Shown here piece after piece: positions 13,301-64,000 of a stretch of DNA of 64,000 bases; position 1 is the first letter of the stretch; the number at the start of each line of letters is the position of its first letter. The stretch is from Bremia lactucae (taxonomy: Eukaryota > Oomycota > Peronosporomycetes > Peronosporales > Peronosporaceae). The translations under genes and the position numbers were made by a program. The stretch covers positions 1,585,228 through 1,649,227 of the forward strand of contig NC_090628.1 of NCBI RefSeq assembly GCF_004359215.1. The letters are read 5' to 3'. The notes beneath the pieces were generated by a model. The model saw only the letters and a program-made list of their open reading frames with translations. It made no database searches and had not been told where the DNA came from.

Positions 13301-13534
13301 CGACCAGGAAAGCTGCCTACAAATATACCGTGAATCAATACAGAATAGCGCTTTGAATAGAGTAATCTTCCTACCCGTCGGCTGTGACATGGGCTGCTGT
13401 TGCTGCTCATTGTATTGCATATTTCCGTAGCCGATGCCAGGTGATGCATATCCACCACCGCTTTGAGGACCTTGATGTTGCTGAGAGGACGGTGGGCCTC
13501 CAAACCCACGAGGCGGGAGGTTATGCGGCTGCAT
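10330..13534 (-). CDS. SEC24: SEC24, COPII coat cargo-binding subunit
   Basis: Sec24 pairs with Sec23 at ER exit sites, forms the inner COPII coat and selects cargo. Reading on the minus strand, an ATG at 13534 opens a 160-nt first exon (start MQPHNLPPRGFGG). A 58-bp intron with GT at 13374 and AG at 13317 follows, then exon 2 runs to a TGA at 10330. The splice joins phase 1 to give QPTG-SFPGRE and a protein of 1,048 residues, normal for the family. The first 290 or so residues are rich in Pro, Gly and Gln. A zinc finger follows at about 345-375 (RCTRC, then CNIC), then the vWA-like trunk (VFLLDVSHFAF), beta-sandwich, helical and gelsolin regions. An upstream in-frame ATG at 13593 reads through the intron and is not the likely start. 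The gene is convergent with SMG1. Paralogue type (A/B or C/D) was not decided. Confidence 0.93.
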
Positions 13535-13838
13535 CTTACGCTCCCGACGCTTTGAGCTCCACGTGTGCAGTGAGGGTACGGAACGGTTTTCACGGGGAAG
13601 CTATTTTTAGCGTTTTACAAATTTCTAGTATCACTTTTGAGAACTGGACGAAACGGAATAATCGTGCTTGAGAAAGTCTGCAATACTTTATCATTTCCAC
13701 GATCTAAATTGTATAATTAATTCTCATTGATAGGTGTAAATTCTAACCGTGAAACTTACAAATTCATTAAGAGCAACTGTACCTTTCGTTACATCTACCG
13801 TGCGCACGGGCAAATTAGGTACTTGGCTATCTTCTTAA
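13535..13838. other. 5' flank of SEC24
   Basis: This stretch holds the presumed SEC24 promoter and leader on the minus strand. It is AT-rich beyond 13600. I see no gene and no TATA or initiator element that I could defend. Confidence 0.4.
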
Positions 13839-28584: not shown

Positions 28585-30126
28585 TTACTTGATCGACTTG
28601 TCTACAACAGGCTTTGCCTCTATTGCAGCCACCGCTTCACGAAGTGCCTCAAATTCTTCCTTTGCGAAGTCCAAAAATTGTTTGGCATCGACACCAACGC
28701 ACGGGTCTACAAGAGCATTCAGACCGAGCTCATCGCCCATTGAAAGGATGGCCACCCCGAGGTTCACATAAGGTGGAGGGGGAACAAAGCCGTAGAAGCC
28801 CGACACTTGCTTCTTGCAAAGGCTCATTACCACGGCGCTACTTCGCACATTAGTAGTGGCCACGGACATCCGGCTCGTAACGAAATGGACAATAATCCGC
28901 ATCAGTGGCGCAGGAAGCATCGATATTAGGTGGTTTGACCAGTAGACAAAATACTTTTCCAGCGAAGATTTGGCTTCATTCATCGAGGCTGTGACGTGAT
29001 GCAGACGCTGGACAGGGTTTTCTATGCCAATCGGAAGATCAATTAGAAGCGAAGAGAATCGGTTGCTAGTGTGGCGTATGACTTCTGTGCTTGTGCGCAT
29101 GTCCACGGGGATAGCACAGCGCACCTTAAGCGATGGAGCCACGGATTCCCCCACAGCCAGCAAAGTTTTGCGCATGGCACCCGCCACGATAGTCAGCATC
29201 ACGTCATTCACAGTGGATTGAAATAGTTTCCCTACCGCCTTGGAAGTTTCGACAGAGTAGACCATGGAGTAAGACAATCGTTTGAGCCTGCCGCCGGGGC
29301 GTTTAAAGGCTGTAGCCGGCTCATGTCGAGCAAAGAGTGCGATCGTATGGTACGTGATCACGTAGGTCGACCAGAGGCAGACATAGAAAAATATCAAAAT
29401 GTCTCGAACGATCTGAGCTAGCGACTTTTTTGCCTTAAAAGTCTTTTGATTCGGTTTCGCCCCTGTGCGCTTCTCGAGCATGGCATTAGAGGCTTTACTT
29501 TGATCGCTGAGTTTTTCCATTGCCATAGCAAGCGACGCACCATCTCCAAGACAGTGGTGTACCTTCCAGCCAACACTCGTGATTCCTGCGTTGCCGGGAT
29601 CGCAAATTACATGCATCTCCCACAGCGGCTTGTTAAAGTGTAGTGGCACGTTCACTAGCGCCGACTCAATGTACGACATGATCGTCTCTCCCTCTGTAAT
29701 TGTGTGCTCGACCACATTTTGCTCAATGTCATACTCGGGAACCTCCACAAACTTAAAGACACCCTTAACGTAATCGCCGCGCACCACGCTGCGCCATCGC
29801 AAAAAGAAGGAATCGTGTTGTAGACGCGAACGCAAGCGCTCGACTAAGTCTGCTTTCGTCAAATTGCCATACACCGTGATGACTGTAATTGGAATCGACA
29901 AATTCGTGGGCACTTCGGTGACGAGCGTCGTGAGGCCAATGTTGCTAAGCTTGCGTGTGAGCTTACGGCTAGAATGCGTCGTGTCCTTAAGAACATTCTG
30001 ACACGAGTGCGAGACCGCAGCAATGATACCCGAGAGCGCAAGAATCAGCACCGCTGCTAATATTAGCATGGGCGCATCGAGGCCATTAGGCGCTAGCCGC
30101 GTTAAAAGACCTCCTGCCGCGTCCAT
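28585..30126 (-). CDS. wax ester synthase/diacylglycerol acyltransferase (WS/DGAT) family protein
   Basis: The family esterifies acyl-CoA to fatty alcohols or diacylglycerol for storage lipid. From the ATG at 30126 the protein has 513 residues and no intron. A hydrophobic segment sits at about 19-38 (PMLILAAVLILALSGIIAAV). The active-site motif HHxxxDG reads HHCLGDG at 190-196. A second hydrophobic stretch follows (IFFYVCLWSTYVITYHTIAL), then the C-terminal WS/DGAT domain with TVNDVMLTIVAGAMR, and PYVNLGVAILSMGDELGLNA near the end. The open frame continues 100 codons further up to 30426. That part contains a duplicated low-quality segment and lacks family resemblance, so I prefer 30126. Which substrate is used cannot be told from sequence. 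Confidence 0.9.
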   Translation of the reverse strand: MDAAGGLLTRLAPNGLDAPMLILAAVLILALSGIIAAVSHSCQNVLKDTTHSSRKLTRKLSNIGLTTLVTEVPTNLSIPITVITVYGNLTKADLVERLRSRLQHDSFFLRWRSVVRGDYVKGVFKFVEVPEYDIEQNVVEHTITEGETIMSYIESALVNVPLHFNKPLWEMHVICDPGNAGITSVGWKVHHCLGDGASLAMAMEKLSDQSKASNAMLEKRTGAKPNQKTFKAKKSLAQIVRDILIFFYVCLWSTYVITYHTIALFARHEPATAFKRPGGRLKRLSYSMVYSVETSKAVGKLFQSTVNDVMLTIVAGAMRKTLLAVGESVAPSLKVRCAIPVDMRTSTEVIRHTSNRFSSLLIDLPIGIENPVQRLHHVTASMNEAKSSLEKYFVYWSNHLISMLPAPLMRIIVHFVTSRMSVATTNVRSSAVVMSLCKKQVSGFYGFVPPPPYVNLGVAILSMGDELGLNALVDPCVGVDAKQFLDFAKEEFEALREAVAAIEAKPVVDKSIK

Positions 30127-30322
30127 GGTCTGATTATACAAATGCCTGTTAAAAGAATATGCATCCAGTGCATAGTAACCGCAGCCTCGAGGAGAATCTA
30201 TACGGCTGTTAGGAGTTTCAAGAAGGATTGCGGCAAAGAAACAGAGGGTATGTATTAAAACTCTTTCTAACAACACTAAATATATTTTATTCCCCAATAA
30301 TGTTTGCTGTGAACACTCACGC

Positions 30323-30388
30323 AGATTGTGCTTCGAACAACAGGTTATGAGCCCAAGATTGTGCTTCGAACTACAATTCATGAGCCCA
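30323..30388. repeat. 33-bp tandem duplication upstream of the acyltransferase
   Basis: Two adjacent 33-nt units start AGATTGTGCTTCGAAC and end TGAGCCCA, with four differences in the middle. It lies about 200 bp upstream of the preferred start. Confidence 0.85.
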
Positions 30389-30583
30389 AGCTCGAAGACT
30401 TGGTAGAAAGATCGTGACGAAAGCACGACAAACCAAGTCGACGCAAGAAGGACGGCCCAGGAAAGAGACCGACAAGGAGTAACATCCTACTAAGTACTTG
30501 AGGTGCCGACACGTGTCATTCGTACCTAGCTTGGTCATAACGATAACCCAGCTGTATTCCCTGATGTACTGACACACATCCCG

Positions 30584-30999
30584 TGTAACGGGTGTATCGT
30601 TAAATAAAATTAACACTTATAGGTTAATAATTAATATATTATCTAAAAGGTAGAGAACATTTGGAGAATATTACTTTACATGGTAATATTCTAAAAGCTT
30701 ATCCGTTAATAGATATACACCATTAAATCTACTTTCTCCGCGGTCCAGTCAGCGCTGAGAGAAAGACAGATAAGACTTTACTACATGCTTTGTATCAATT
30801 TATAATTAAGGTAGTATTTAATAGTTAGAAACACAAGAACTTAATTATATTAATAGAATTTTCTCTTGACCCTCTTAAAGCAAGTGTTTTAAAGAGAGTC
30901 TTCCTGCACGTACTGAAGTGACGTGAGGCACCACTCGCACTTAGGCAGTGCAGAGTGGACTTGTACTGAAGCAGTACAAGTCAGTAGTGCCCCGTTACA
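30584..30999 (+). repeat. E1 5' LTR, family C
   Basis: 416 bp starting TGTAACGGGTG and ending GCCCCGTTACA. Shared with the 3' LTR are TTAATATATTATCTAAAAGG, GGTAATATTCTAAAAGCTTA, TCCGCGGTCCAGTCAGCGCT and GTGACGTGAGGCACCACTCG. Two adjacent hairpins lie near the 3' end (30932-30982). Confidence 0.93.
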
Positions 31000-31001
31000 C
31001 C

Positions 31002-31019
31002 TGGTAGCTTTGTAGTCCG
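31002..31019 (+). other. E1 primer binding site
   Basis: TGGTAGCTTTGTAGTCCG begins two bases after the LTR. TGG matches the CCA end of a tRNA primer. The tRNA species was not identified. Confidence 0.7.
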
Positions 31020-31139
31020 TCCAAGGACCACAGTTCCATCATCTAACATGAACATGCTAGATTATAATGGCTATACGCATCACGTTTGCGTGATAGCTAC
31101 TCCTTTCTAAGTGACATAGAAAGGAGTGCGGTCGAACGA

Positions 31140-32185
31140 ATGAGTTCGACCGTAGGGAACGATGCCATCTCGGCCATGCTGTCCGGTTTGAACAGAGATG
31201 CCGTCCATTCAGCCATCGCCAAGTTCATACAACATGAACTTGACGAGGTGAAGGAGAAGGTAGCCTGACTTAAAAGCAAGGCTCTCAACAGGCAGAACTG
31301 TTGAGGTTACAACGGGTAAGACCCCTGTACCTGAAATGACGCACACGCGTCGTCCCGAACCTTAACGATTGACATCTCTAATGAAAGGGGAGTTGAAGAG
31401 ACTACCTCTTAAGATATTTTGTCGAGTTGGACGATGCCATAAGAGCTCGTCACAACGTCGACGAGCAAATGCAAGTCGCATTTGCTCAGTCAAATTTGGC
31501 AGGTCGTGCCAAAACTTGGACACAAGGCCGTAAGTTGCGCGACCCATATGTCTTTGGGTCGCTAGAGGTTTTTAAAGCCCGGCTGAAACAGACGTTTGAA
31601 CCACCAAGGGCTGAGTTCAGAGCTCGATCAGAGCTTCTGAAAGTCAAGCAAGGCAAGCGTAATGTTCACGCTTATGCCCAGCACATACGACTCTTAGCGA
31701 GTTGTATCACAAACAACCCCGTTCATGAATACACGTTGATTACGGTGTTGATGCAAGGTCTTACAGATGGTCCCGTAAAGACCCACCTATTCCGCTTGGA
31801 ACTGGATATGCTTGAAGAAGCAATATCCGTTGCGGAACATGAGGACTTCAGCTTCAGACAGGCTCAAGTTAGTTCGTCATCATATCGTCCTCCAAGACGA
31901 CACGAACTGGGAGGCCCAGAACCCATGGACCTCTCTTACTTCGAAAGCGAGAGACCTCGCTTTTCGAGCAATAAGCGATTGCAGAAATGCCATCGCTGCC
32001 AAAAGTTAGGACACTACGCTCATGAGTGTAGTGCCCCACGCCCAGCATCGAAAGGTACTGAACGTAATTTTGGACCGCATGCCAGAAGGACAACGGTCGC
32101 GGGTCCGACATTGTTGCGAAATCGCAACAGCGGGGCCGACCGCCAAAAAACGGTCGGGGTCAGTGATGGCGCAACGCCCTACTGA
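31140..32185 (+). pseudogene. E1 gag
   Basis: An ATG at 31140 gives SSTVGNDAISAMLSGLNR, then a stop at 31268. The main capsid part follows in another frame (31427-32185) with FAQSNLAGRAKTW, LKQTFEPPRAEFRARSELL and QHIRLLASCITNNPVHE. GGPEPMDLSYFESERPR and one zinc knuckle, CHRCQKLGHYAHEC, follow. Gag packages the element RNA into cytoplasmic particles. Confidence 0.9.
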
Positions 32186-32226
32186 TCCAACAACCTCAGG
32201 AGAATTTGCAAATCTCTTGACTAAAG

Positions 32227-32600
32227 TTGCTCCAGACACACAATCATTATGTGTCTCTGCACCTAAATGATGAGGTATTCCTCATCACCTTGAAAACAAA
32301 AGTGACAAATGATTTGTTACTTAAAGCCCTAGTGGACTATGGAGCGTCGAATAACTTTTTACGTCGCCAGTCGCTAGAGGGTCGCAGGCTCAAATATGTT
32401 GATCGCGACATCCCTCCAACGAGGATGACGGTGCGTTTAGCGACAGGCGCATCGATAACAGTAATGAAACGCGTAGTGAAATTTCACGACACGTTAAAAG
32501 ATTCACAGTACGATGAAATCATCATTGTACTGGATCAAATGACAAATTTAATGTCATCCTAGGTTTACCTTGGCTCAGTAAATATGAGCCAAAAATCAGC
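32227..32600 (+). pseudogene. E1 aspartic protease
   Basis: The frame contains LKALVDYGASNNFLRRQS, so the catalytic D-S/T-G reads D-Y-G. It runs to about 32548, where a one-base slip moves the conserved ILGLPWLSKYEP into another frame. Confidence 0.85.
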
Positions 32601-33013
32601 TGACAGCATCGATCCGTAAAGATGCCTGCCACTTGTTCATCAGATGACCATCTGCTGAACGTCTTGGAGCGTCCACAAGCGTGTGGATGTACTACGAGTG
32701 AGTGCGATGACATCACTTGTAGTACGGTCGTTAGTGCGACTGCACAAGATCATAGTTTGATTACTAATCACCCTATGGAGTCAGCTGCCGATGGCTGTGC
32801 GAATGCATAGGAAGCGCTGAAGGTCCACCACGATAGCGCAATCACAGTCGGAAGACGTTGAGGGAATAAGTCCCCACGTACCTGAGGAAAAATCTCCTCA
32901 AATAGTTAGCGCTTAAGTGACTAGACTTCAGCATCCCGAGGGATTGATCCCTCGGCAGTCTGTGGATAATTCCCAGGAAGAAACCGACACATTAAACGTC
33001 TTGAATAATGACG

Positions 33014-34250
33014 GATCAAAAGTGGGCGCTTATACTTTTGATCTGTATGCGCCGCCGAAGTTAACTTCGGAGACAACTCAATTACCAACCCTAGAATCCA
33101 AGCGGTTCTTTAGAGATCGGCATAGTGGAAGAATCAAGCGTACTCGTCGCAGAGAACGAATACGTAACCTATATTCGGTCAGCGTTAATTTTTGCAGAGA
33201 ACGAACGGGTTCTCAGCAGCTCATCGATGGTCGAAAGTGTCCTCGATGTGAAGTCTTGGATTGAGATTGAGAGATTTACTACTCAATCCTGGGAGTCGCT
33301 TAAGACAAATCTTTTTACAAAAAATTAATTGATTCAAGGATGAATCCCCTGAAGTAGTTCCATGCGAGTTGCCTAAGAATAAAGGCACTCGACATGAGAC
33401 AGAGCTTAAACCGGGCTCGAAGTATCGTGTCATGAAGCAGTGGCAGTGGCCACTGCCTCGTGAACAAGTATTTGCAATCGATAATTTTCTTATCGATCGA
33501 TTAAAAGCGGGCCTACCCACATAGCTGTCCGACCAACTGTGTGCGGAAGGCCATAGGAGGGTGGCAGATAGTGCACGCATTCAATAAACTGAATGCTGCA
33601 ACGGTACCAACTCAAACGCCGATACCTAGAAAATACTTAAGCAAAGATGTTATGTCTATGAGTACCATCTTTTCGTCTATGGACCTGATGGATGGATTTT
33701 GTCAGATCCTAATGCGTCAACGGGACATCCCGTACACAGCAGTGAGCACCCCCAGCGGGTTGCTCTGGGAATGGCTAGTAATGCCACAGGGGCTTAGTAA
33801 CGCCCCTGCAACATTTAACAGTGCGTACCGAATCTGTTGAGTCTGGTGCAAGAATTCGCACCGAATTATTTTGACGATGTGTTCGTCCATAGCTGGGTCA
33901 TGAACGGAAAGACGGACGTGGAAGATCATTAAATTCACGTTCGCCGTACGCGAAAGCATAAGTTGTATGCAAATTTCAAGAGGTGTATATTCGCTGCAAG
34001 CGAAATATCACTTCTTGGGTGCATCGTCGGTAAACACGGCGTGCGCCCTGATCCCGAAAAGATCAAGGCAATTACAGACTGGACAGTTCCAGTCGATGTC
34101 AAGGACTTAGAAGGCTCTTTGGATTAGCAGCGTACTTGCACGAGTACTCCCGCAATTATGCAGAGATGACTGTTCATCTCTCTCCAGTACTCTCGCAATT
34201 ATGCCGAGATGACTGTTCATCTCTCTCGTCTCTTGAAAAAATTGGAGAAA
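33014..34250 (+). pseudogene. E1 reverse transcriptase
   Basis: Pre-RT and finger frames (32917-33264) precede STIFSSMDLMDGFCQILM, EWLVMPQGLSNAPATF and the catalytic YFDDVFVHS at 33867. Frame changes near 33330, 33520, 33838 and 34125 break it. A repeated segment AGTACTCxCGCAATTATGC near 34142-34204 marks a small tandem duplication at its end. Confidence 0.9.
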
Positions 34251-34329
34251 CGGTTATGGAACTCTGATTGTCAGCGTTCTTTGAAGGTAGCATGCAAAAC
34301 TTGATGCAATCGCCCATCTTGGCGATTTA

Positions 34330-34723
34330 GATCAAGACAGACCATTTTATGTGGTCTATGACGCCAGCGATTTCGCAATCGGCTGAGCGTTAATGCAATA
34401 CGATACAGACGGCGTGGAGGGCGTCGTCTTTTACCAATCGCGTCAGCTGCAACCAGATGAACGCAATTACCCAGTGCATGACAAGGAACTCCTTGCCATG
34501 AACTATGCATTGGCTAAATTTAGGGTCTATCTCCTCGGAGATAGATCGTTCATCGTATATACGGACCATGCGTCATTACGCACGGCCGTAGACAGCCCAC
34601 ACCTCTCGCAAAGAAGGCGATATGGCTATCCTTTTTCGCGGAGATATAATTTCTCCGTGGAAGATAATCCAAGACGACTTAATGTCGTCGCTGCTGCGCT
34701 ATCACGCCATCCCGATTTCGAGT
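34330..34723 (+). pseudogene. E1 RNase H
   Basis: Frames read YQSRQLQPDERNYPVHDKEL, VYTDHASLRTAVDSPHLS and NVVAAALSRHPDFE. A TGA interrupts the first part near 34384. Confidence 0.9.
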
Positions 34724-34889
34724 AAGCAGTGTACTCCAACAGTGAAAATAATCTTCCTGTTGCGACACTCATTTCAAGTGTCCGTCATTAACCTTATTTG
34801 ATGACATAAAGAAAGCCTACGCAGAAGACAAGAACCTTCTTCGTTTAATGGATCATCTAATGAATCCATCCGATAAATCTTTTAAAGAA

Positions 34890-36060
34890 AATCCGGCTCT
34901 ATATCGATCGTCATCCGATCGATACACAATACGCAAGGCTTATTGCTTTACACAGCCGTTGCCGGCGACACTCCATGTGTCGTCGTCCCAACTCACAATG
35001 ATTTGCGCTTGCGCATCATGTATGAGTGTCACGATGCACCAACAAGTGGGCATCGGGGACGTGAGAAGACTTATCTTACAGTAAGTTGCGAGTTTTACTG
35101 ACCCCGTCAGTATCAGCTCGTGCGCAAGTACATTCGTGCTTGCGAAGTATTTCAACGGGTGAAGCCTAGCCCTTCATCCCGTGCACCTCTCCAACCTCTA
35201 TCACTTCCGGCAGAATGTTGGCAGTCCGTATTTACAGACTTCGTCTTCGGATTCCCAAAGACGATCACATAACTATGGAATCCTTGTTTTTGTAGACAGA
35301 TTCAGCAAGATGGTACATCTTGCTGCAGTACCAGAGTCGATTACGGCTCCGGGTTGTGCCCGTGTCTTTATCGACACGGTATTTTTTTTTCAAACACCAC
35401 GTGTTACACCGTGGACTGGTTTCGAATAGAGATCCACGGTTTACGGCGGAGTTTTGGCAATCCGTGTTCCGAACTCTCGGAATACGGCTGACTATGTCAA
35501 CATCTGATCATCCAGAGGCATATGGTCAGACGGAGCGCGTAAATCGCGTCCTCGAAGAGATACTTCGGGGTTACGTCCAATCGTATCCGAATTGGAGGGA
35601 GTTATTACCGACGGTCGAATTTGCCACTAATTATTCGGTGCATGCGTCTACAACGCATACACCGTTCTTCGTGAATGGCTTATGCCATCCACGCATACCC
35701 ACCCAATTAGAGGGATCCTTTAGTTTAAGAGGGGGTGTGGACTCGCACGAGCAAAACCATTTCTGGCTCATGCTCATCACGCATCGAAGTTACAAACGAC
35801 GCGAATGATGTCGATGTCGAAGCAATCGACAATGAAGATGAGAAAAATCCCATGTCAGTGCGCACAAAGCGCACTGAAAAAGACAAATCAAATGAGTCAG
35901 CAGAGGAATTCTGCTGGCTCGAGAATCAGTGATCCGTTTCGCACAGGAATCCATTGCTAACGCAGTTGACCGGCAGAATCGGAACACATACAAACATGGA
36001 AGAGCAAATATTCTTTCATTTAAAATTAATGATCTAGATCTTTTGTCTAGTAAACTTACC
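34890..36060 (+). pseudogene. E1 integrase
   Basis: The zinc-binding zone reads H..H...C..C in pieces (MYECHDAPTSGHRG, then RKYIRACEVFQRVKP). The core follows with FVDRFSKMVHLAAVPES and MSTSDHPEAYGQTERVNRV, then FFVNGLCHPRIPTQ. The tail reads ANILSFKIND. Several frame changes are present. Confidence 0.88.
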
Positions 36061-36249
36061 TAAGCATGTAGTCACATGTGTAGGTAGTAGAGAACTTCTA
36101 CCCATGTTCATTGATTTTTATCGTGTACTGCATCGCAGAGGCAATGCGTACACAATAGAATTGCCAAGTAGGATGCGAACGCATCCTCCGTTTACGTTAG
36201 CCGGCTCCGCCCGTACCAGTAGTAAGCGGTCTCTTCCAAGGACGGATCT

Positions 36250-36590
36250 GACCACCCTTTTCTAGAATCCCTAAGAGATTCTTGTGGTCACAAACCAGAT
36301 TCTCATGTTTAATGTGGAGATTCTCATGCCGGGTCCGAAGATCCTTGAAGCCGCAAGAAGCGGAAGACAGCTCATCACGAAGAGCGTGATATTTCCGTTC
36401 GTACTCCTAAATAGAGTACGCACTCTTGGACCGGTCTTCCAACCGTTCGATGTGGTGAGCCTGCCCCGTCAGCTCTAACAAGCAACGCTTACCGCGCTCG
36501 TCATCATGTCCCACCTCCAAATCATGGAGAAAGTAATCGAGTTTATCGATTTTCGACTCTATACATTTCCGTCCTCCGCCACAACAATTG
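36250..36590 (-). other. antisense coiled-coil-like frame in the E1 pol linker
   Basis: The minus strand is open apart from one TAG over about 115 codons. It reads DKLDYFLHDLEVGHDDERGK, IERLEDRSKSAYSI, EYERKYHALRDELSSASCGF, RHENLHIKHENLVCDHKNL, and ends GILEKGGQIRPWKRPLTTGT then GGAG and a stop. E2 keeps the same peptide and the same stop. The sense strand here is the weakly conserved stretch between integrase and chromodomain. It could be the end of the antisense protein described next, or a shadow. Confidence 0.5.
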
Positions 36591-36780
36591 GTGGATTCCC
36601 TTGGTGGTCAACGTTTCCTTGTGCAACGTCTTAAAAACCACCGTGATATGAAGCGGCAGCGAACGAGTTATCCACCTTCACACGACAGCTGGGAGCCTCG
36701 TTCCCAGCTGGTTGTTGACGTTGAGGGCCTCGTTGTTGTCGTTGAGGGCCTCGTATGTCAGCATGATGAGACCCAACCGA
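36585..36780 (+). pseudogene. E1 chromodomain
   Basis: The frame contains TSYPPSHDSWEPRSQLVVDV and a short duplicated VEGLVVVVEGLV. The usual W-R-G before Y-P-P is disrupted. Confidence 0.8.
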
Positions 36781-36822
36781 TGAATCAGAAGGTCCATCGG
36801 AATACACGCGCACCTGGCGCTT

Positions 36823-37889
36823 CTAAATCGATTGCAAAACGTCAATCGCATCGCGCATCTCGATAGAGATGCGAGCCCTTATCCTGGGCGAAGAAAGGGA
36901 ATAGACATCCCCTTTTACTCGCTTCAGGTTGTAAACACAACACGGACAGGGATTACTCCGCGTGAGGCATCGAAGCCCAGCCTCACGTGACAACCGATGC
37001 AATTTATACCTTGCACCGGTTAGAGTTCGTTTCTCAAACTTGACGCGAATAGCGTTAAGTCTTTGAAGCCAGGCTTCGCGTCCAATGTCTTTGACATTGC
37101 GAATGAACGCGCTCCTGGCTTGCATAAGCGAGACTTTATCTCGCTTGTTGTTGCCACTGTACCATCGATGCTTAAGAAAGCATAGAGATAAAAATCTTCC
37201 TCAGCGCGAAAGTTTTTCGCGCTGGGATCAAGGCCATGTAGCTTTGTCGCAAATTAATAAGGGATATTTATTGTAAGGAATAGTCTCTCCAGACAAGCAA
37301 TTGCTTAGCTGTCAGGCAAAAGCCACGGTTTCTTCTCAGGGGCAAGACGAGACATTTTAGTATGTACGACCCCCTGAGTGGTACCCACTGAAGCAGGGGT
37401 ACCACAAGAACTTTTATTACGATAGCTTACGCCATCGCCATCACCACGCACACAAATACGTGCGGGTGACGGCACAGGAGACGATGCTGGCGATGAGGAA
37501 TCATCCTCATCGTCGGAACCAATCATGCTGTACCGAATGCTACCCGCCCGTCCACCCGAATGAGCTCTCTCATTCGAAGGCTCATAGTCAGCCGCCTGAC
37601 GATGATCAGGCGTCTGTTGTGTTCTCCCCGAGTCGGCCATTTCGTCCGACTCGCATTCGTAGTCGACCTCCAAAGGTCGCATTCACGTGGTGTATCACCA
37701 CGTGCACCCGCATCATTATGAGTTGAGGGAGAAGATGACACTACGGCAGACGTTCTGTCTGCCGCAAGAGACAATAATGCGTCCTGCGGCTGTATGAACC
37801 GCAGCCGAAGGCACCGCACTACTCGCATACCGCATGGACTTGTTAACCATGCGAAAGAATTTAGAATGATGGTTCTGACCAATCAACAT
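36823..37889 (-). CDS. antisense accessory ORF of E1 (broken)
   Basis: Lies between the chromodomain and the 3' LTR on the strand opposite to pol. An ATG at 37889, 61 bp from the LTR, begins MLIGQNHH and then MVNKSMR. After frame changes it continues at 37682-37305 as an acidic region (VDYECESDEMADSGR, RQAADYEPSNERAHS, GSDDEDDSSSPASSPVPSP) and SRLAPEKKPWLLPDS. At 37125-36823 follow AFIRNVKDIGREAWLQRLNA and FEKRTLTGARYKLHRLSREA. Matching blocks occur in E2 and E3. No family was recognised. A bipartite protein with an acidic N-terminal half and a basic, helix-like C-terminal half is all that can be said. Confidence 0.6.
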
Positions 37890-37949
37890 CGGTTTGAACT
37901 ACTCTACCTAATAACAGTCAGAGTGATTGTCGGTTAATGGTGTGGTGAT

Positions 37950-38384
37950 GTAACGGGATGTATCGTTACATGAAATTACACTTAAAGATTGCTAATTAAT
38001 ATATTATCTAAAAGGTATATAATACTTGGAGGATATTACCTTACATGGTAATATTCTAAAAGCTTATTCATTGGTAGATATAGACCATTATATCTACTTT
38101 CTCCGCGGTCCAGTCAGCGCTGGACGCGCGAAAAGAGAAAGACAGATAAGACTTTATTACATGCTTTATAATAGTTTATATTTAAGTTAGTATTAAGTCA
38201 ATAAAAATAAAAGAACTTAATTATATTAATACATTTTGTTCTAACCCTCGTATAAGCAAGTATATTAAAGAGAGTCTTCCTCTGCAAGTACTAGTGTACG
38301 TCAAGTGACGTGAGGCACCACTCGCACTGAGGCAGTGCGAAGTGGACTTGTACTGAAGCAGTACAAGTCTAGTGCCTCGTTATA
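37950..38384 (+). repeat. E1 3' LTR, family C
   Basis: 435 bp starting TGTAACGGGATGTATCG and ending CCTCGTTATA, followed by TCCCG. It differs from the 5' LTR by many substitutions and small indels, so the insertion is old. The sequence before it, GGTGTGGTGA, is a poor polypurine tract. Confidence 0.92.
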
Positions 38385-38727
38385 TCCCGACTGTAATGAG
38401 GCACACATCGGTTGGAGAATCGTTGTTGTGGTACATTTACTTTATGCGTAAAATACCCTTTTATCCTATTCTGAAATAGTTAATTACTTAAACCCCATTT
38501 ATTATGGGTAACAAATGTGGTCGCCGCCAGATATAAATCTGGCGACCGAAATCTATTTTTAAATAAGCTAAGTTAAGGTTTTAAATTAGATATTTTAATA
38601 AAGGTGCAGTCACCCTTTTGATCTTAAAGCGTTAAGTGCCATCCTAACGCTTGGGCAATGATCTGTTAGAGATAGAAGCCTAAGGTACATCCTCTTGGGC
38701 ACGAGTTACCACTTGATTCTCCGAACC

Positions 38728-55139: not shown

Positions 55140-56455
55140 CCTCGTGTCGTCATCCCCGCCCTAATGATTTGCGTTTACGCGTGATGTATGAGTGTCACAA
55201 TGCACCAATAAGTGGGATGTCGGACGTGAGAAGACTTATCTCATTATGAGTCGCGACTTCTACTGGCCGCACCAGTATGAGTTCGTCCGCAAGTACTTAC
55301 GTGGTTGCGAAGCTCGTCAACGGGTGAAGCCCAGTGCTTCATCCCGTGCTCCGTTACAACCTCTGCCTCTTCAGCAAAGTGTTGGCAGTCTGTAGCCATG
55401 GACTTCGTCTTCGGATCACCCGACGACGAACATAGGAATAATGGTAAGCTTGTTTTTGTTGATCGTTTCAGCAAAACGGTACATTTTGCTGCAGTAGTGG
55501 AGTCGATCACAGCCAAAGGCTGTGCTCGTGTCTTTGTTGACACGATTTTCGAATTTATGGGTTACCATGCGTACTGGTTTCAGATCGAAATCCTAGATAC
55601 ACGGCGGAATTTTTGCAAACTGTGTTCAAAATCACTTGGAACACAGTTTAAAATGTCAACTGTCGATCAATTTGAAACAGATGGTCAGACGGAGCGGACA
55701 AACTGTATTCTTGAAGAGATACTTCGCGGATTCGTCGACTCTTTTAAGAGTCAGAGCGAGTTTTGCCGATGTATAATTTGCCATCAACAACTCAGTGCAT
55801 GCTTTTACAAACCATACACCGTTTTCGTGAACGGGTAACACTCCCCACGTATACCTGCACTGTTTGATAATTCCTCTTTTTCGTGGGGTGGGTACTCGCT
55901 CGAGCAAGAACCTTCTTACTCTTGCTCATCACGCGTTAGCACTAGGGTCAATACGAAAGATACAATGTTAATTAACTAAAATTGAAGTGGACAAACTCAG
56001 AAATAACATAGTACTATTACTGACTTGACAACGATGCTGAAAGACTCAGCATTGAAAACAATATTATTACAGAGAACGATAATTGGCTCCATAATAAAGA
56101 GACTAATATCTCCGCAGTATGAGCCGGTCGCACTGTTGACTCGGTTTTATTTTTGTTTTTAGGTGACTTCCTGTTGGCTAGAGAAGCAGTGGTCCGTCTC
56201 GTACAGGATTTCATCGCTGATGCGGTGGACCGACAGAAACGGAACTTCGACAAAACTGGTAGAGCAAACATACTGTCATTTAATGTTAATGACGTAGTCC
56301 TATTGTCTACGGTAAACTTACCAACATATGTAGTGATGAATTTAGGCAGTAATAAATTACTGCCCAAGTATGGCCCGTTTCGTGTACTACATCGCCAAGG
56401 CAGTGCGCACACGATCGAGCTGCCTCATAGTATCGTACGCATGCTACGTTTTTGA
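55140..56455 (+). pseudogene. E3 integrase
   Basis: Zinc-binding zone MYECHNAPISGMS and YLRGCEARQRVKP precede a 177-codon frame with FVDRFSKTVHFAAVVESIT, MSTVDQFETDGQTERTNCI and TVFVNG. The tail at 56153-56455 reads NILSFNVNDVVLLSTVNLPT and GPFRVLHRQGSAHTIELPHS. Confidence 0.88.
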
Positions 56456-56590
56456 ATGGGCGTCTCCTTACGTACCATCAGTTTGAGGCTTCTTCCGATT
56501 CCGGATTACACCGCAAAGGTCAAGGGCATTCACTAAAGCCAGATGGTTCCGAGCCAAAGACTTGTTGTCTCGAAACAGAGTCTGACTCTC

Positions 56591-58266
56591 TTAAACCGGA
56601 CGACCCACTCTATCCTCCAAGGAAGAGATCTTCTGACGAGCTGTCACCAGCTCACTTTGAAGGGACTGATGTAATCTTTCGTTCGCCAGTTGATCACTCG
56701 CAACCTGCGCACAATGTCTCAGCTGGTCACGATAAACATTAACAACCGTCACCGCTAACTCGCGGCGACGAGATTGCTCGTGGTTAAGATCCTCCCTTAA
56801 GTAATAAAGGGTGAGATCCAAATTACTATGTTGATTTTCGAGCTCGTCAAACGAGGGGAACCCGATCTCCCGCCCCCCCCCTCCACATTCATCAATGAAT
56901 TCAGGTGGTGAGAAGCGCTTTCTTATTAAAAGCTTCTTGAACAACCGTGATTCAAAGGGGATTTGAATGAGTTATCTCGTTCGTTGGCGAGGGTATCCTG
57001 CCTCGCTTGATAGTTGGGAACCTCGTTCCCAAATGATGTGGAACGTTCCGGATCTCGTCTTGCAGTACGACGAGAACCATCCTCATCGGCAGAAGGTCCA
57101 TCGGAGAACGAGCGCTTCCCGCGCTCGTTAAAGGCTTGACGGTACTCAATCCCTCGACGCAACTTGTAACAATTGAGAGTACTCCAATGGGGATCTTTAT
57201 GGAAATATGCTTCTTAGGGGCATGGCCTGCACCCTTATAACGGCTTGGGCATGTGTCTTCCCACGAGAGGCAACGAATCTTCGCCTCTCTAGACAAACAG
57301 TGCAACTTATAGCGTGCACCGACTGCTGTCCGTTTCTCGACCCATTCACGTTAAGCATTTAGCTTGTCAAGCCAGACCTCACAATTCATGTTTTGTACAT
57401 TCCGCACAAAGGCTGTCCAAGCTTGGAACAAAGGTTTGACATCCTTTGCCCGTTTACAACTTTATAAACTTAATAAAAAGGTTAAAATTGTTGCAAAAAC
57501 ATATAAAATTATATCGTGTACTACCGATGCCGGAAAAAGGCATCGATGAAGAGTTCCGTTTCATTCTCACCAGTCCTGTGAAGCCTGGATGAGTCGAACA
57601 ACGGAATATGATATTGATCGTTGGTCATACCAGTCCAACGAACAAGGTTTCTCTTAGAGGGTAACCAAGGCCTTTTTTCAAGAGCGAACCGCACGTATTG
57701 CGGTCCCTCTCCTGGTGGCTCATGTTAGCGTTCACACTAACTTGGCCCTTGGGGTAATCCCTAATATCACTCCTTTTCTGGTGATGCAAACTAGCACCAC
57801 CAGCAGAACTCTTCCCTTCGCGACCGCTTAGTTCCTGGTGACGCATACCGACGTCATCAGAGTGGTCATCACCACGGAGTCATCTGATGATGACTCCCCA
57901 CAAAAGAGGTCTGACGAGGAAACAACCTCGTCATCACCTTTCTGGTTGTCACGTTAGAATCCAAAGGTTTAACGGACTCGCCCCGTGTGATCCGGCGGCC
58001 TATTCAGTAGCCACTCAGTCTAGCGATGACGGTGAGTTGGTCTAGTCACCTACACTTGGTGTAACAGATGACTTGTTCCCATAACCAATGTCATCAACAG
58101 ATGACATACCCCAGTCACCTCAAATGGAAGTAGGAGGTGACATATCTCCCGCAGTAGACGCATGAGCGTCTACTGAAACATTTGCTCTACTGACAGCTGC
58201 ACTGATACGTACAGCTGCCAGCTTAGCGGCCTCACAGCCTACGCGCACAGACTTATTCGTCGCCAT
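56591..58266 (-). CDS. antisense accessory ORF of E3 (broken)
   Basis: From an ATG at 58266, about 140 bp inside the LTR, the minus strand reads MATNKSVRVGCEAAKLAAVR, parallel to MVNKSMR in E1. Downstream blocks, across stops, are LFQAWTAFVRNVQNM and VEKRTAVGARYKLHCLSREA (near 57420-57270), then FNERGKRSFSDGPSADEDGS (57162-56926). Last, opposite the chromodomain linker, are FDELENQHSNLDLTLYYLRE and SRRRELAVTVVNVYRDQL (56944-56591). The SDGPS block also occurs in E1. The second half is Leu/Glu/Arg-rich and could form a coiled coil. Function unknown. Confidence 0.5.
56940..57132 (+). pseudogene. E3 chromodomain
   Basis: After a stop the frame reads MSYLVRWRGYPASLDSWEPR, SQMMWNVPDLVLQYDENHPH. 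This is the best preserved chromodomain in the window. Confidence 0.88.
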
Positions 58267-59341: not shown

Positions 59342-59781
59342 TGTAACGGGGCACTACGACTTGTACTGCTTCAGTACAAGTCCACTTCGCACTGCTTCAG
59401 TTGCGAGTGGTGTCTTACGTTATTTCACGTACACTAGTTTGTGCAGAGGAAGACTTCTCTTTAAGACAAATAGCTTAAAGAGGGTTGAATGAAAACTGCA
59501 TTAATATAATTAAGTATCTCTTCTTTCTTTCTGTTAGTGCTAACTTAGTTATAAAAAACTAATACTAAACATGCAATTGAAATCTTATCTGTCTCTCTCT
59601 TTGTTTACGTTTACAGCTGATTAGTCTGCGGAATAAATAGATGTAATGGCCTATACCTAATTATGAATAAGATTTCTGAACAATATAAAGTAATATCCTC
59701 CAAATAGCATCAACCTTTAAGATAATATATTGATTAACAACCTTTAAGTGTTCATTTCATGTAACGATAAGGCCCTTAACA
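59342..59781 (-). repeat. E2 3' LTR, family C
   Basis: 440 bp; on the plus strand it starts TGTAACGGGGCACTACG and ends GGCCCTTAACA. It carries the same 25-nt hairpin as E1 (59358-59382) and matching AATATATTATCTTAAAGG-like blocks. Confidence 0.9.
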
Positions 59782-59794
59782 TCACCCCTCCCTT
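59782..59794 (-). promoter_or_regulatory. E2 polypurine tract
   Basis: On the element strand AAGGGAGGGGTGA abuts the 3' LTR and is the expected primer for plus-strand DNA synthesis. E1 and E3 keep only GGTGTGGTGA and GATGGGTGA. Confidence 0.8.
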
Positions 59795-59860
59795 ATACGA
59801 CAATCACTATGAATGACATTGAATGGAGTGGTCCCTATGTGACCACTTAATTTAAAGATG

Positions 59861-60827
59861 ATGTTGATTGGTCAGAACCATCATTTTAAATTCCATCGCA
59901 TGAAGAACAAATTTATGCGGGGTGTTGATAGTGCTGCGCCTTTGGCTGCGGTTCGTGCAGCCGCGGGTGACGCACTATTATCTCTTGCAGCAGAGGGAAC
60001 GTCTGCCGTAGTATCTTCTACTCGCACAACACTAGATATTGCGGGTACACGTGGTGATTCACCACGTGAATACGACCCCTCTTTGAAGGTCGACTGCGAA
60101 TGCGAGTCGGACGAAACGGCCGACTCGGGGAGAATAGAACAGTCGCCTGATAGACGTCAGGCGGCTGACTATGAGCCTTCGAGTGAGAGGGCTCATTCTA
60201 ATAGACGAGTTAGTAGTCTTTTTGGATCCGACGATGAGGATGATCCCTCATCGCCCGTTCCGTCTCCCGTACGGTCACCTGCAAGTGTTTCTGTGCAAGG
60301 TGATGACGATGGCGTAAGCCATCGTAATATAAGTTATTATGATACCGCTGCTTCAGTGGGTACCACTCAGGGGGGTGAAGACAGTGAAATATCTCATCTC
60401 GCCCCTGAGAAGAAGTTGTGGCTGTTGCCAGAACGGCTAATCAAAAGCTTGTCTGGAGAGACTACTCCTCACAACAAATATACCTTAATTATTGCGACAA
60501 AGCTACATGGCCTTGATCCCAGCGCGAAGAACTTTCGCGCTGAGGAATATTTTATCTCGATGCTTTTCTAAAGCATCGAGGTTAGAAGACCGTTGGAAGA
60601 GTGCGTACTCCATGTTGGAGTACGAACGGAAATATCACGCTGTACGTGATGAATTCTCGTCAGCTCATCGCAGTTTCGAGGTAATTCGGAACCGGCATGA
60701 GAAACGCCAGGTTCAACATGAGAATCTGGTTCGCGATCACAAGAATCTTTTAGGGATTCTTGAAAAGGGTGGTCAGATTCGTCCTCGGAAGAAGCCGCGT
60801 ACTGGTGATATGGGCAAAGCCGGCTAA
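59861..60827 (+). CDS. antisense accessory ORF of E2
   Basis: The cleanest copy. From the ATG at 59861, 80 bp inside the LTR, 236 uninterrupted codons run to 60571: MLIGQNHHFKFHRMKNK, AAGDALLSLAAEGTSAVVSS, GDSPREYD, ESDETADSGRIEQSPDRRQA, ADYEPSSERAHS, GSDDEDDPSSPVPSPVRSP, SHLAPEKKLWLLPERLIKSL and THPHNKYT-like TTPHNKYTLIIATKLHGLD. A second frame then continues at 60574-60827 with ASRLEDRWKSAYSMLEYERK, AVRDEFSSAHRSFEVIRNRH and KNLLGILEKGGQIRPRKKPR, ending GKAG. Relative to E1 the part covering AFIRNV...RLSREA and the chromodomain appears deleted. No domain family was recognised. Confidence 0.6.
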
Positions 60828-61060
60828 CGTGAAACGTAGGATGCGTTCGCATCCTACGTGGCAATTATATTGTGTACGCATTGCCTCTGCGATGCAGTAC
60901 ACGGAAAGGCCCAATGAACTTGGGTAGTAGTATACTGCTACCCACATTAGTGATTACACGCTTAGGTACGTTTACCGTAGAGAGTAGTACTAGTTCATTG
61001 ATTTTAAATGAATAAACATTTGCTCTTCCATGTTTGTCTGCATTCCGTTTCTGACGGTCC
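60568..61060 (-). pseudogene. E2 integrase tail and linker
   Basis: The minus frame reads PRRMRTHPTFHVSRLCPYHQ, then an acidic Ser/Asp/Glu-rich linker (ASSEDESDHPFQESLKDS) that is antisense to the coiled-coil-like frame. The chromodomain is missing. Confidence 0.75.
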
Positions 61061-61379
61061 TTTGCATTAGCAATGAAATCCTGTTCGAAACGGATTACTG
61101 ATTACCGAGTCAGCAGAAATTCCTCTGCTGACTTATTTGTTTTTGTCTTTTCAGAACGCTTTGTGCGCGCTGCCATGAGATCTTCCTCATCTTCGATGTC
61201 GATTTCTTCGACATCGACATCACTCGCATCGTTGTTAACTTCGACGCGTGATGAGCATGAGCCAGAAATGGTTATGCTCGTGCAAGTCCACCCCCCCTAA
61301 ATTAGAGAATCCCTTAAAATGGGTGGGAATGCGAGGATAGCGTAAGCCATTCATGAAGAACGGTGTATGCGTTGTAGAC

Positions 61380-62100
61380 GCATACACCGAATTATTGATA
61401 GCGAATTCAACCATCGGTAAAAACTCGCTCCAATTCGGATACGATTGGACGTAACCTCGAAATATCTATTCGAGGACGCGATTTACGCGTTCTGTTGGAC
61501 CATCCGTTTCTGGGTGATCGGATGTTGACATAGTCAGCCGTGTTCCGAGAGATCGGAACACGAATTGCCAGAACGCCACCGTAAATCGCAGATCTCTATC
61601 CGAGACCAATTCAAGGGGTAAACCATGGAGTTTGAATACCGTGTCGATAAAGACACGGGCACAACCCGGAGCCGTAATCGACTCTGGTACCGCAGCAAGA
61701 TGGTACATCTTGCTGCGGTACCAGAGTCGATTGTCTACAAAAACAAGGATTCCATTGTTTTTGTGGTCGTCTTCAGGAAATACGAAGACGAAGTCCATAG
61801 ATACGGACTACCAACACTCTGCCGGAAGTGTTAGAGAGTGAAGAGGCGCACGTAATGAAGACCTAGGCTTCACCCGTTGACATGCCTCGCAAGCACGAAT
61901 GTACTTGCGCACGAAATGCTACTAGCGGGGCCAGTAAAAGTCGCGACTTACTGTGAGGTAAGTTTTTTCATGTCCATGATGCCCACTTGTTGGTGAATCG
62001 TGACACTCATACATGATGCGCAAGCGCAAATCATTGTGAGTTGGCACGACGACACGTGGAGTGTCGCCGGTAACGGCTGTGTAATACAATAAGCCGTTGC
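61380..62100 (-). pseudogene. E2 integrase
   Basis: The core reads HLAAVPESITAPGCARVFID, LHGLPLELVSDRDLRFTVAF and MSTSDHPETDGPTERVNRVL. A 12-bp in-frame insertion converts VDRFSKMVH to VDNRLWYRSKMYH by an inverted duplication. The zinc-binding zone lies at about 61860-62040. Confidence 0.88.
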
Positions 62101-62307
62101 GTGTTGTGTATCAATCGGATGACGATCGATATAAAGCCGGTTAATCTTTAAAAGATTTATCGGATGAATTCATCAGATGATCCATTAAACGGAGAAGGTT
62201 CTTGTCTTCTGCGTAGGCTTTCTTTATGTCATCAAATAAGTTAATGACGGAACACTTGAAATGAGTGTCGCAACAGGAAGATTATTTTCACTGTTGGAGT
62301 GCACTGC

Positions 62308-62710
62308 TTACTCGAAAACGGGCCGGCGTGATAACGCATCAGCGACGACGTCAAGTCGTCTTGGTTTATCTTCCACGGAGAAATTATACTCCGCGAAGAA
62401 GGATAGCCACCTCGCCATTCTTTGCGAGAGGTGTGGGCTGTCTACGGCCGTGCGTAATGACGCATGGTCCGTATATACGATGAACGGTCTATCTCCGAAG
62501 AGATAGACCCTAAATCTAGCCAATGCATATTTCATGGAATGGAGTTCCTTGTCATGTACTAAGTAATTGCGTTCAGCTTATTGCAGCTGACGCGATTGGT
62601 AACAGACGACGCGCTCCGCGCCGTCTGTATCGTATTGCATTAATGCGCAGCCATTCCAAAATCACCGGCGTCACAGACCACATCGAATGGCCTGTCTTGA
62701 TCTAAATCGC
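62308..62710 (-). pseudogene. E2 RNase H
   Basis: 75 clean codons read MKYALARFRVYLFGDRPFIV, YTDHASLRTAVDSPHLSQRM and VVADALSRRPVFE. The first catalytic Asp region (about 62580-62700) is in another frame. Confidence 0.9.
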
Positions 62711-62759
62711 CAAGATGGGCGATTGCATTAAGCTTGGCTTGATACCTTCAAAAAACGCT

Positions 62760-63440
62760 GACAATTAGCGTTCTATAACCGTTTCTCGACTTTTTTCAAG
62801 AGACGAGACAGATGAACAGTCATCTCTGCATAATTGCGAGAGTACTCGTGCAAGTACGCCGCTAATCCAAGGAACCTTCTAAGTCCTTGACATCGACTGG
62901 AACTGGCCAGTTGGTGATTGCCTTGATCTTTTCGGGATCCGGGCGCACGCCACGTTTACCAACGATGCACCCAAGTAATGGTATTTCGCTTGCAGCGAAT
63001 ATACACTTGTTGAGATCTGCATACAACTTATGCGTTCACATAAGTTTAAGAAACTGATGAACGTGAGCTTTATGAACTTCCACGTCCACCTTACCGTCCA
63101 TGGCCCGGCTTTGGACGAATACATCGTCGAAATAACTCGGTGCGAATTCTCGCACCGGTCTCAACAGATTTTATACACATCTGCTGAATGTTGCAGGGGC
63201 GTTACCAAGCCCCTGAGGCATCACTAGCCATTCCCAGACTATCCCACTGGAAGTGCTCACTGCTGTGTACGGGATGTCCCGTTCATGCATAAGGATTTGA
63301 TAGAACCCATCCATCAGATCCATAAACGAAAAGATCGTACTCGTAGACATGCCATCTATGATTACGTCTTTTTTAGGTATCGGCGTTTGAGCCGGTACCG
63401 TTGCAGCATTCAGCTTGTTGAATGCACTATCCGCCACCCT
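62760..63440 (-). pseudogene. E2 reverse transcriptase
   Basis: Reads FNKLNAATVPAQTPIPKK, STIFSFMDLMDGFYQILM, EWLVMPQGLGNAPATFSRCV and, after a frame change, YFDDVF near 63122 with intact aspartates. Confidence 0.9.
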
Positions 63441-63999
63441 TCTGTGGCTTTTCGCACACGGAAGGTCGGAGAGCTATGTGGGGAGGTTGACTCCCTCACA
63501 TGGCCCGCTTTTACTCGATCGGTAAAGAATTTATCGATCGCAAGTACTTGTTCACGAGGCAGTGGCCACTGCTTCATGACACAGTACTTCGAGCCCGGTA
63601 TGAGCTCGATCTCATGTCGAGTACCTTTATCCTTAGGCAACTCGCATGGAACTGCTTCAGGGAATACATCCCTGAATTCTATTAAATCCTCGTATAGAGG
63701 ATTTCCCTTGAGTGACTCCCAAGATTGAGTACTGTATCTTTCAATCCGAGTCTTCACATCGAGGACACTTTCGTCCATCGATGAGCTGCTGAGAACCCGT
63801 TCGTTCTCTGCAAAAATTACCGCTGACCGAATGTCGGTTACGTAATCGTCCTCTGTGACGAGTACGCAGATCTGCTTGATTTTCCCACAATGCAGATCTC
63901 TCAAGAACCGCTTAGGTTCTAGGGTTGGTAATTGAGTTATCTCCGAAGTTAACTTCGGAGGCGCATACAGATCAAGAGTAGAAGCGCCTACTCTCGATC
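63410..63999 (-). pseudogene. E2 pre-RT region
   Basis: 165 clean codons (63904-63410) read QICVLVTEDDYVTDIRSAVI, FRDVFPEAVPCELPKDKGTR, HEIELIPGSKYCVMKQWPLP and HVRESTSPHSSPTFRVRKAT. This is the least damaged pol segment of the E1-E3 family here. Confidence 0.88.
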
Positions 64000-64000
64000 C

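What the first reader, a model, noticed from the sequence alone, without database searches (positions are those of the whole stretch)
59861..60571. Antisense accessory ORF conserved across three Gypsy copies with two LTR types
E2 has 236 clean codons antisense to pol, starting 80 bp from the 3' LTR. E1 (37889 down to 36823) and E3 (58266 down to 56591) carry the same arrangement, broken. Shared blocks seen by eye: start MxNKSMR / MKNKFMR / MATNKSVR; E1-E2 acidic block SDExADSGR, RQAADYEPS, GSDDEDD and LAPEKKxWLLP; E1-E3 block AFxRNV, EKRTxxGARYKLHxLSREA. Antisense ORFs near the 3' LTR are known in some plant Gypsy families; I know of no named family for this protein. A regulator or captured host gene is speculation.
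Basis: partly seen in the sequence, partly recalled or inferred. Interest (0 to 1): 0.85.

Follow-up and report, generated by a model that had tools for sequence, protein, structure and literature searches.

The report
Hidden backwards gene in jumping DNA
A family of virus-like jumping genes in a downy mildew genome carries, on the strand opposite its own genes, an extra gene of unknown kind that natural selection has kept as a protein and that partly overlaps the element's main enzyme gene; the stretch reported here is a broken front piece of it.

Summary
Window 59858-60571 (+) is an open frame on the strand opposite a Ty3/Gypsy element (E2), 76 nt from its 3' LTR; E1 and E3 carry broken relatives. 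But E2's ORF is only the disordered front of a protein of about 530-590 residues: E2 lacks a ~710 nt block present in E1. The genome gave 151 matches with only 150 of 4557 candidates scored, a near-identical young group included. Relatives are listed from Peronospora and Hyaloperonospora. The frame is under purifying selection: substitutions shared between copies favour antisense third codon positions, copy-private ones do not; dN/dS is below 1 in 77 of 78 pairs of 13 chosen open copies, median 0.45. In fuller copies the 3' 40% of the gene lies opposite pol; opposite the pol linker between GPY/F and chromodomain, the antisense frame, not pol, looks constrained. The model has a disordered acidic tail, a helical core and one 106-residue helix; no family or fold matched the core. 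Best reading: a nuclear, dimeric accessory or regulatory protein, like plant antisense aORFs in position, unrelated in the tests made. Expression and function are untested.

The parts
59858..60571 (+). E2 antisense ORF: N-terminal, mostly disordered part of the protein plus about 60 residues of the core; frame lost near 60545
60624..60821 (+). Remnant of the antisense gene's C-terminal coiled coil and basic end (RPRKKPRTG), in another frame after the missing block
   Evidence: 82% to L027 ORF residues 486-551
59342..59781 (-). E2 3' LTR (TGTTAAGGG...CCCGTTACA)
59785..59794 (-). Purine tract AAGGGAGGGG next to the E2 3' LTR (polypurine tract, by position)
60574..64000 (-). E2 pol, 84% identical to E1 33013-36452; runs out of the window
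30584..38384 (+). E1: Ty3/Gypsy element with both LTRs, 30584-30999 and 37949-38384, TCCCG on both sides (5 bp target-site duplication 30579-30583 / 38385-38389); pieces match gag 31397-32182, RT 33505-33837, RNase H 34387-34722, IN zinc domain 34886-35098, SH3_Tf2-1 (GPY/F; below its cut-off) 36038-36262, chromodomain (very weak) 36537-36863
36125..37850 (-). E1 antisense gene, broken by stops and frame changes
56317..58266 (-). E3 antisense gene, broken, a more distant branch

Best explanation
A chromodomain-bearing Ty3/Gypsy lineage of downy mildews carries a second gene on the strand opposite gag-pol. It starts about 60-140 nt from the 3' LTR, on the pol side, and runs back into pol, ending just inside the integrase GPY/F module. 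SHOWN: it encodes a protein kept by purifying selection while the elements spread; relatives share an acidic, disordered tail, a net-positive core with conserved His and Cys, and a basic end (KKxRTD) after a long predicted helix. INFERRED: transcription starts from an antisense promoter in or next to the 3' LTR; the long helix dimerises as a coiled coil; the basic end is a nuclear signal; the core (perhaps zinc-bound by H-x9-C-x6-C-x2-C) contacts nucleic acid or chromatin; the acidic tail recruits host transcription or chromatin factors. The protein would then act in trans in the nucleus to raise or protect the element's own expression, or to steer integration.
For: Protein coding: between-copy steps per site at antisense codon positions 1/2/3 are 1.84/1.95/2.70 in codons 1-186 (74 copies, permutation p 0.0008) and 1.91/1.78/2.43 in the rest of the pol-free part (57 copies, p 0.004); copy-private steps are flat (p 0.23, 0.19) and an LTR control shows no frame with p below 0.06 (34 copies). 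dN/dS below 1 in 77 of 78 pairs of 13 chosen open copies over the first 215 codons, median 0.45, range 0.25-1.17; over 325-326 codons two well-kept pairs give 0.20 (bootstrap 0.13-0.33) and 0.21 (0.14-0.33). Lengths of 529-534 aa in P. matthiolae and 593 in P. effusa with the same layout. A young group of 18 copies, median 3 differences in up to 680 nt, has no stop before codon 228; 4 of the 18 have one further on (codons 270-373). Layout: N tail net charge -4 to -16, core +5 to +12, last 40 residues +2 to +5 in 6 proteins; residues 171-290 pLDDT 87-95 per block, helix 431-536 85-97.
Against: No transcript, protein or localisation data. No known DNA-binding family or fold matched. The Cys cluster (292-302 in P0033) lies where the model is less sure (pLDDT 66-78), so the zinc site is a guess. 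A scan for an oomycete Inr-like motif (recalled consensus) upstream of the gene gave no more than shuffled sequence. E1 against E2 alone shows no codon-position bias. The positive control, pol integrase, gave only a weak, non-significant excess in shared steps (ratio 1.03; 1.15, p 0.19), and the private steps leaned to pol third positions (1.18, p 0.03); so selection on the two strands cannot be ranked. The copies were fetched from the best-scoring hits, and the 13 open ones were chosen by me.
Confidence: 0.5

Rival explanations
1. The antisense protein is a particle or integration cofactor (nuclear import of the integration complex, or targeting together with the integrase chromodomain), not a transcription or silencing regulator.
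For: Basic end, long helix and net-positive core would fit a scaffold; the gene lies on an element that has a chromodomain.
Against: An antisense transcript is an odd way to make a particle protein, since it cannot come from the genomic RNA; the acidic tail is more typical of regulators (inference).
Confidence: 0.2
2. The functional product is antisense RNA (double-stranded RNA, siRNA control), and the reading frame is a by-product.
For: Antisense transcription of LTR elements can feed siRNA pathways (review PMC7264820, passages).
Against: Codon-position bias, dN/dS below 1 and protein conservation across genera need a translated product. The RNA could still have a second role.
Confidence: 0.05
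3. The antisense frame is a shadow of a sense-strand gene (open only because of codon usage on the other strand).
For: A sense-strand open frame of 98-175 codons lies opposite the N-terminal part in the 7 copies looked at (L010, L016, L018, L027, L029; L089, L091), and pol lies opposite the 3' part.
Against: By the coordinates that frame's third position is antisense position 2, which shows no excess (1.95 against 2.70 at position 3); opposite the pol linker the pol third position has the fewest shared steps (ratio 0.66). In E2 itself the longest such stretch is only 91 codons.
Confidence: 0.02
4. A host gene captured by the element, acting for or against the host.
For: Origin is unknown; no other family resembles it in the searches made.
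Against: Named relatives in the lists are from downy mildews, with two P. matthiolae clusters of 1335 and 524 member sequences; no low-copy host ancestor was seen. Lists were capped (120 of 163, 120 of 235), and other oomycete genomes could not be searched.
Confidence: 0.05

Closest known systems
Retand antisense ORFs with the TRP28 domain (plant Ty3/Gypsy; PMC11963269, abstract and passages seen)
   Same: ORF between pol and 3' LTR, antisense to gag-pol, kept in recently active elements, suggested there to bind DNA and regulate.
   Different: No PF04195 among the Pfam matches of nine relatives; Retand is a non-chromovirus lineage of flowering plants, this element has a chromodomain and its relatives are oomycete; here the gene also overlaps pol.
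Grande gene23 and RIRE2 / PvRetro13 antisense aORFs (review PMC7264820, passages seen)
   Same: Position and orientation; Grande GENE23 is nuclear and transcribed from its own promoter according to the review.
   Different: Not compared in sequence here; localisation and promoter of the present protein untested.
HTLV-1 HBZ and other retroviral antisense proteins (mentioned in PMC11963269; layout recalled)
   Same: Antisense gene starting near the 3' LTR; acidic N part and C-terminal coiled coil (HBZ layout from memory).
   Different: No bZIP model matched; unrelated element.
Oomycete Chronos / Archon Ty3/Gypsy elements (PMC5348765, passages seen)
   Same: Oomycete Ty3/Gypsy; Chronos also has a chromodomain after integrase.
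   Different: Chronos has a second, plant-type RNase H; none matched in the E1 pieces searched. The word antisense does not occur in that paper's main text.

Membership tests
Antisense aORF class (aORF-3R) of LTR retrotransposons | ORF between pol and 3' LTR, antisense to gag-pol | tested here: met
   in fuller copies it additionally overlaps pol
Antisense aORF class (aORF-3R) of LTR retrotransposons | Present in most copies and in several species | tested here: inconclusive
   many copies (151 matches) and relatives in Peronospora and Hyaloperonospora; the share of element copies that carry it was not counted
Antisense aORF class (aORF-3R) of LTR retrotransposons | Antisense transcript | not testable with these tools
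   no RNA data held; Inr-like scan negative
Retand TRP28 proteins | PF04195 domain | tested here: not met
   absent from the Pfam families listed for 9 relatives up to E 5 (HMMER filters drop most matches above about 0.1)
Retand lineage | Non-chromovirus pol | tested here: not met
   Chromo PF00385 E 4.7e-14 in copy L010
Chronos oomycete elements | Chromodomain after integrase | tested here: met
   SH3_Tf2-1 followed by Chromo in L010
Chronos oomycete elements | Additional plant-type RNase H | tested here: inconclusive
   only E1 pieces searched: one RNase H match, no second one; about 115-130 codons lie between the RNase H match and the IN zinc domain, so space alone does not exclude it
HBZ-like bZIP antisense proteins | bZIP domain | tested here: not met
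   no bZIP model among Pfam matches of 9 relatives; a long helix is predicted
Tyrosine-recombinase core-binding domain (UniRef name of P0037) | Core-binding fold | tested here: inconclusive
   name; no Pfam, PHROG or fold match
RxLR effectors (UniRef names of P0027, P0029) | Secreted protein with RxLR motif | not tested
   both align to this family and look like pieces of it; no signal-peptide or motif test was run

The most novel reading that the evidence does not exclude
An oomycete Ty3/Gypsy lineage evolved its own antisense regulatory gene independently of plants: an undescribed helical, possibly zinc-binding fold joined to a coiled coil, overprinted on pol so that the pol linker between the integrase GPY/F module and the chromodomain is shaped by the antisense protein. 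It could be an anti-silencing or transactivating factor behind the spread of such elements in downy mildew genomes.
Probability: 0.4. Interest if true: 0.78.

Novelty: new variant of a known kind. Interest (0 to 1): 0.6.

Why it matters
It adds a protein family without known relatives, in another eukaryotic group, to the puzzle of why LTR elements keep antisense genes, and it comes with a test of coding by selection, including a stretch where two genes share both strands. The core is a confident model with no fold match in the searches made, so it may be a new domain. In practice, many 'uncharacterized' proteins listed for Peronospora matthiolae, and at least two database 'RxLR effector' entries, belong to this family and should be checked before effector and gene-family counts.

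Tried and rejected

Sense-strand frame opposite the N-terminal part: rejected as the driver (wrong codon position). RNA-only function: disfavoured. E1-E2 pair test: flat (pol 0.121/0.120/0.130 with 702 of 3366 positions left out for ambiguous frame, antisense 0.155/0.161/0.170). Pol integrase as positive control: weak. With 17 of the 19 control copies the antisense region still shows 0.26/0.28/0.49, p 0.0045. Chromodomain stretch: neither frame significant; in the linker the private steps lean to pol third positions (1.21, p 0.04). Inr-like motif: no more than shuffled.

Rows dropped: 7 of 56 sequences in the overlap test for identity or cover, the window's E2 copy (L001) among them, then 2 near-duplicates, 50 to 40 and 39 to 34 sequences. 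L008 and L013 are the same place, so the 90 loci are 89 places and '78 of 89' counts one place twice; near-duplicates were removed before the step counts, not before that one. L090, L092 and L093 were fetched but used in no count.

Judged by titles and abstract starts, none listed a paper on an antisense gene in oomycete LTR elements; only open-licence PMC papers are held, so this does not show that none exists.

Full report
WHAT IS THERE. The ORF named in the finding is real and lies on the + strand, 59858-60571, 237 codons. The surrounding element, E2, lies on the minus strand. Its 3' LTR (59781 to 59342) and purine tract (59794-59785) sit just before the ORF start, 76 nt away. E1 is an old element with both LTRs, 30584-38384, LTRs 83% identical, and the same five bases, TCCCG, on both sides. 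Pieces of E1 match gag, zinc knuckle, RT, RNase H and the integrase zinc domain, and below cut-off SH3_Tf2-1 (GPY/F) and a chromodomain. A better kept copy, L010, matches SH3_Tf2-1 at 8e-15 and the chromodomain at 4.7e-14. E1 and E3 carry broken versions of the antisense gene.

THE E2 ORF IS A FRAGMENT. Compared with other copies, E2 loses the frame near 60545, lacks a match to about 713 nt present in E1 (36452-37165), and shows the end of the gene again at 60624-60821 in a different frame. The missing block holds most of the conserved core of the antisense protein and the chromodomain part of pol. The '236 clean codons' are therefore the acidic tail plus the start of the core.

COPIES AND RELATIVES. 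The genome searched (116 Mb, unnamed) gave 151 matches to this N-terminal part; 4557 candidates were found and only 150 scored, so this is a lower bound. Its relatives point to a downy mildew. Bremia lactucae is a guess only: that species has a 91 Mb published assembly (152 Mb by flow cytometry) with 53 Mb Gypsy (PMC6570648, passages). Two fetched copies run open for 587 and 588 codons from the start used here, though their ends differ in frame; L089, of another subfamily, has 523 open codons. A young group of 18 copies differs by a median of 3 (at most 31) in up to 680 nt and has no stop before codon 228; 14 have none up to the end of readable sequence, 4 have one at codons 270-373. Groups of 8 and of 4 are identical from -100 to 600. 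Many young copies read N further on. Of 89 fetched loci with readable sequence (one place counted twice), 78 are open over the first 215 codons, but they were fetched as best hits. Protein searches list full-length relatives in Peronospora matthiolae (clusters of 1335 and 524 members, 529 aa) and P. effusa (593 aa), shorter ones in Hyaloperonospora arabidopsidis (463 and 260 aa) and P. destructor (168 aa), and others from unnamed ENA contigs. Listings were capped at 120 of 163 and 120 of 235, and P. matthiolae fills most rows, so the full range (for example Phytophthora) is not known from these calls.

IT IS A GENE UNDER SELECTION. For each column of copy alignments I counted parsimony steps shared between copies (changes during spread) and steps private to one copy (mostly decay after insertion). 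In the part without pol opposite, shared steps per site at antisense codon positions 1, 2, 3 are 1.84, 1.95, 2.70 (codons 1-186, 74 copies) and 1.91, 1.78, 2.43 (following pol-free part, 57 copies); permutation p 0.0008 and 0.0037. Private steps are flat (p 0.23 and 0.19), the other two frames show no excess, and in an LTR control no frame goes below p 0.06. Nei-Gojobori dN/dS among 13 open copies that I chose from the 79 in the codon alignment is below 1 in 77 of 78 pairs (first 215 codons, median 0.45, range 0.25-1.17); two well-kept pairs give 0.20 and 0.21 over 325-326 codons with upper bounds of 0.33. E2's own ORF gives 0.38 and 0.68 in the two pairs bootstrapped, one interval reaching 1.2, as expected of a decaying copy.

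TWO GENES ON TWO STRANDS. In fuller copies pol ends about 980 nt into the antisense gene, so the antisense codons from about 327 lie opposite pol. From the antisense start, the order opposite is: pol tail, chromodomain (taken as nt 1083-1278), a linker of about 119 codons, then the GPY/F module; the antisense stop is at about nt 1676 in L018, just inside the GPY/F end. With 47 copies, shared steps opposite the linker are 1.97, 1.44, 2.42 in the antisense frame (ratio 1.42, p 0.0011), while pol third positions have the fewest (ratio 0.66). In the tail and the chromodomain neither frame is significant; private steps in the linker lean the other way (pol third positions 1.21, p 0.04). So the long pol linker appears to be shaped by the antisense protein. 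Results that limit this: integrase itself showed only weak pol-frame bias in shared steps in the copies at hand (ratios 1.03 and 1.15, not significant), and the E1-E2 pair alone shows none on either strand. Seventeen of those scarce copies do show the antisense bias (ratio 1.82, p 0.0045).

THE PROTEIN. Alignment of 42 relatives and 11 diverse ones shows four parts. (1) A tail of 156-279 residues in the six proteins measured, net negative, with blocks such as SGESD and SLFGSDDEDD. (2) A core of about 180 residues, net positive; in the 11 diverse proteins H210, H267, C277 and C287 (P0096 numbering) are invariant and C284 is kept in 10, that is H-x9-C-x6-C-x2-C, a possible metal site (inference). 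(3) A linker modelled as disordered. (4) A long helix and a basic end, KKxRTD. AlphaFold2 on P0033 gives a disordered tail (pLDDT about 40), a helical core 171-290 (87-95 per block), a less certain stretch 291-350 that holds the Cys cluster (65-88), and one helix 431-536 (85-97); a second model of a shorter relative has a similar helical core. No family or fold matched the core with confidence.

MECHANISM. The parts fit a nuclear protein that pairs through its long helix, touches nucleic acid or chromatin through its core, and recruits partners through its acidic tail. Because it is read from the strand opposite the genomic RNA, it needs its own transcript, most simply from a promoter in or next to the 3' LTR; that is untested, and a motif scan was negative. 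A regulator of the element's own expression or silencing is the most likely role (about 0.5); a cofactor for nuclear entry or targeting is the main rival (about 0.2).

COMPARISON. Antisense ORFs between pol and the 3' LTR are a known kind in plant elements such as Retand, Grande and RIRE2, and the review also names Boty. This one belongs to that kind by position and orientation but not to the families tested: no TRP28 domain, a chromodomain pol, oomycete relatives, and an overlap with pol under measurable antisense selection. Oomycete Chronos elements share the chromodomain but also have a second RNase H, of which no match was seen in the E1 pieces searched; this is not conclusive. The ten paper searches listed no report of such a gene in oomycetes, by titles and abstract starts.

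VERDICT. A real, conserved, protein-coding antisense gene; the reported ORF is its broken front. Confidence in 'coding gene under selection' about 0.93; in the nuclear regulator model about 0.5.

Noticed in passing
P0027 and P0029: UniRef names two relatives of this element-borne protein 'RxLR effector' or 'RxLR effector candidate', which suggests that effector lists of downy mildews contain transposon pieces.
   Followed up: partly
P0037: A Hyaloperonospora relative is named 'Core-binding (CB) domain-containing protein', a recombinase DNA-binding domain; no search here supported it.
   Followed up: partly
L029, L027, L016, L010, L018, L089, L091; E1 37361-37726 (+): A sense-strand open frame of 98-175 codons recurs opposite the antisense N-terminal part; its third codon position shows no excess, so it looks like a shadow of the antisense frame.
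   Followed up: yes
window 1587-10190 (+): Uninterrupted 2867-codon ORF with PI3/PI4 kinase, FATC and SMG1 matches: an SMG1-like kinase without stops in this part.
   Followed up: no
window 10330-13593 (-), 26434-28134 (+), 28585-30426 (-): Long ORFs that look by eye like a Sec24-type coat protein, an HBS1/GTPBP-like GTPase in two ORFs, and a wax-ester/DGAT-type acyltransferase (recalled motifs, not tested).
   Followed up: no
window 30584-30999, 59342-59781, 58405: LTR ends form a short inverted repeat (TGTAACGGG...CCCGTTACA in E1); the same start letters lie downstream of E3's gene although no LTR pair of E3 was found.
   Followed up: partly
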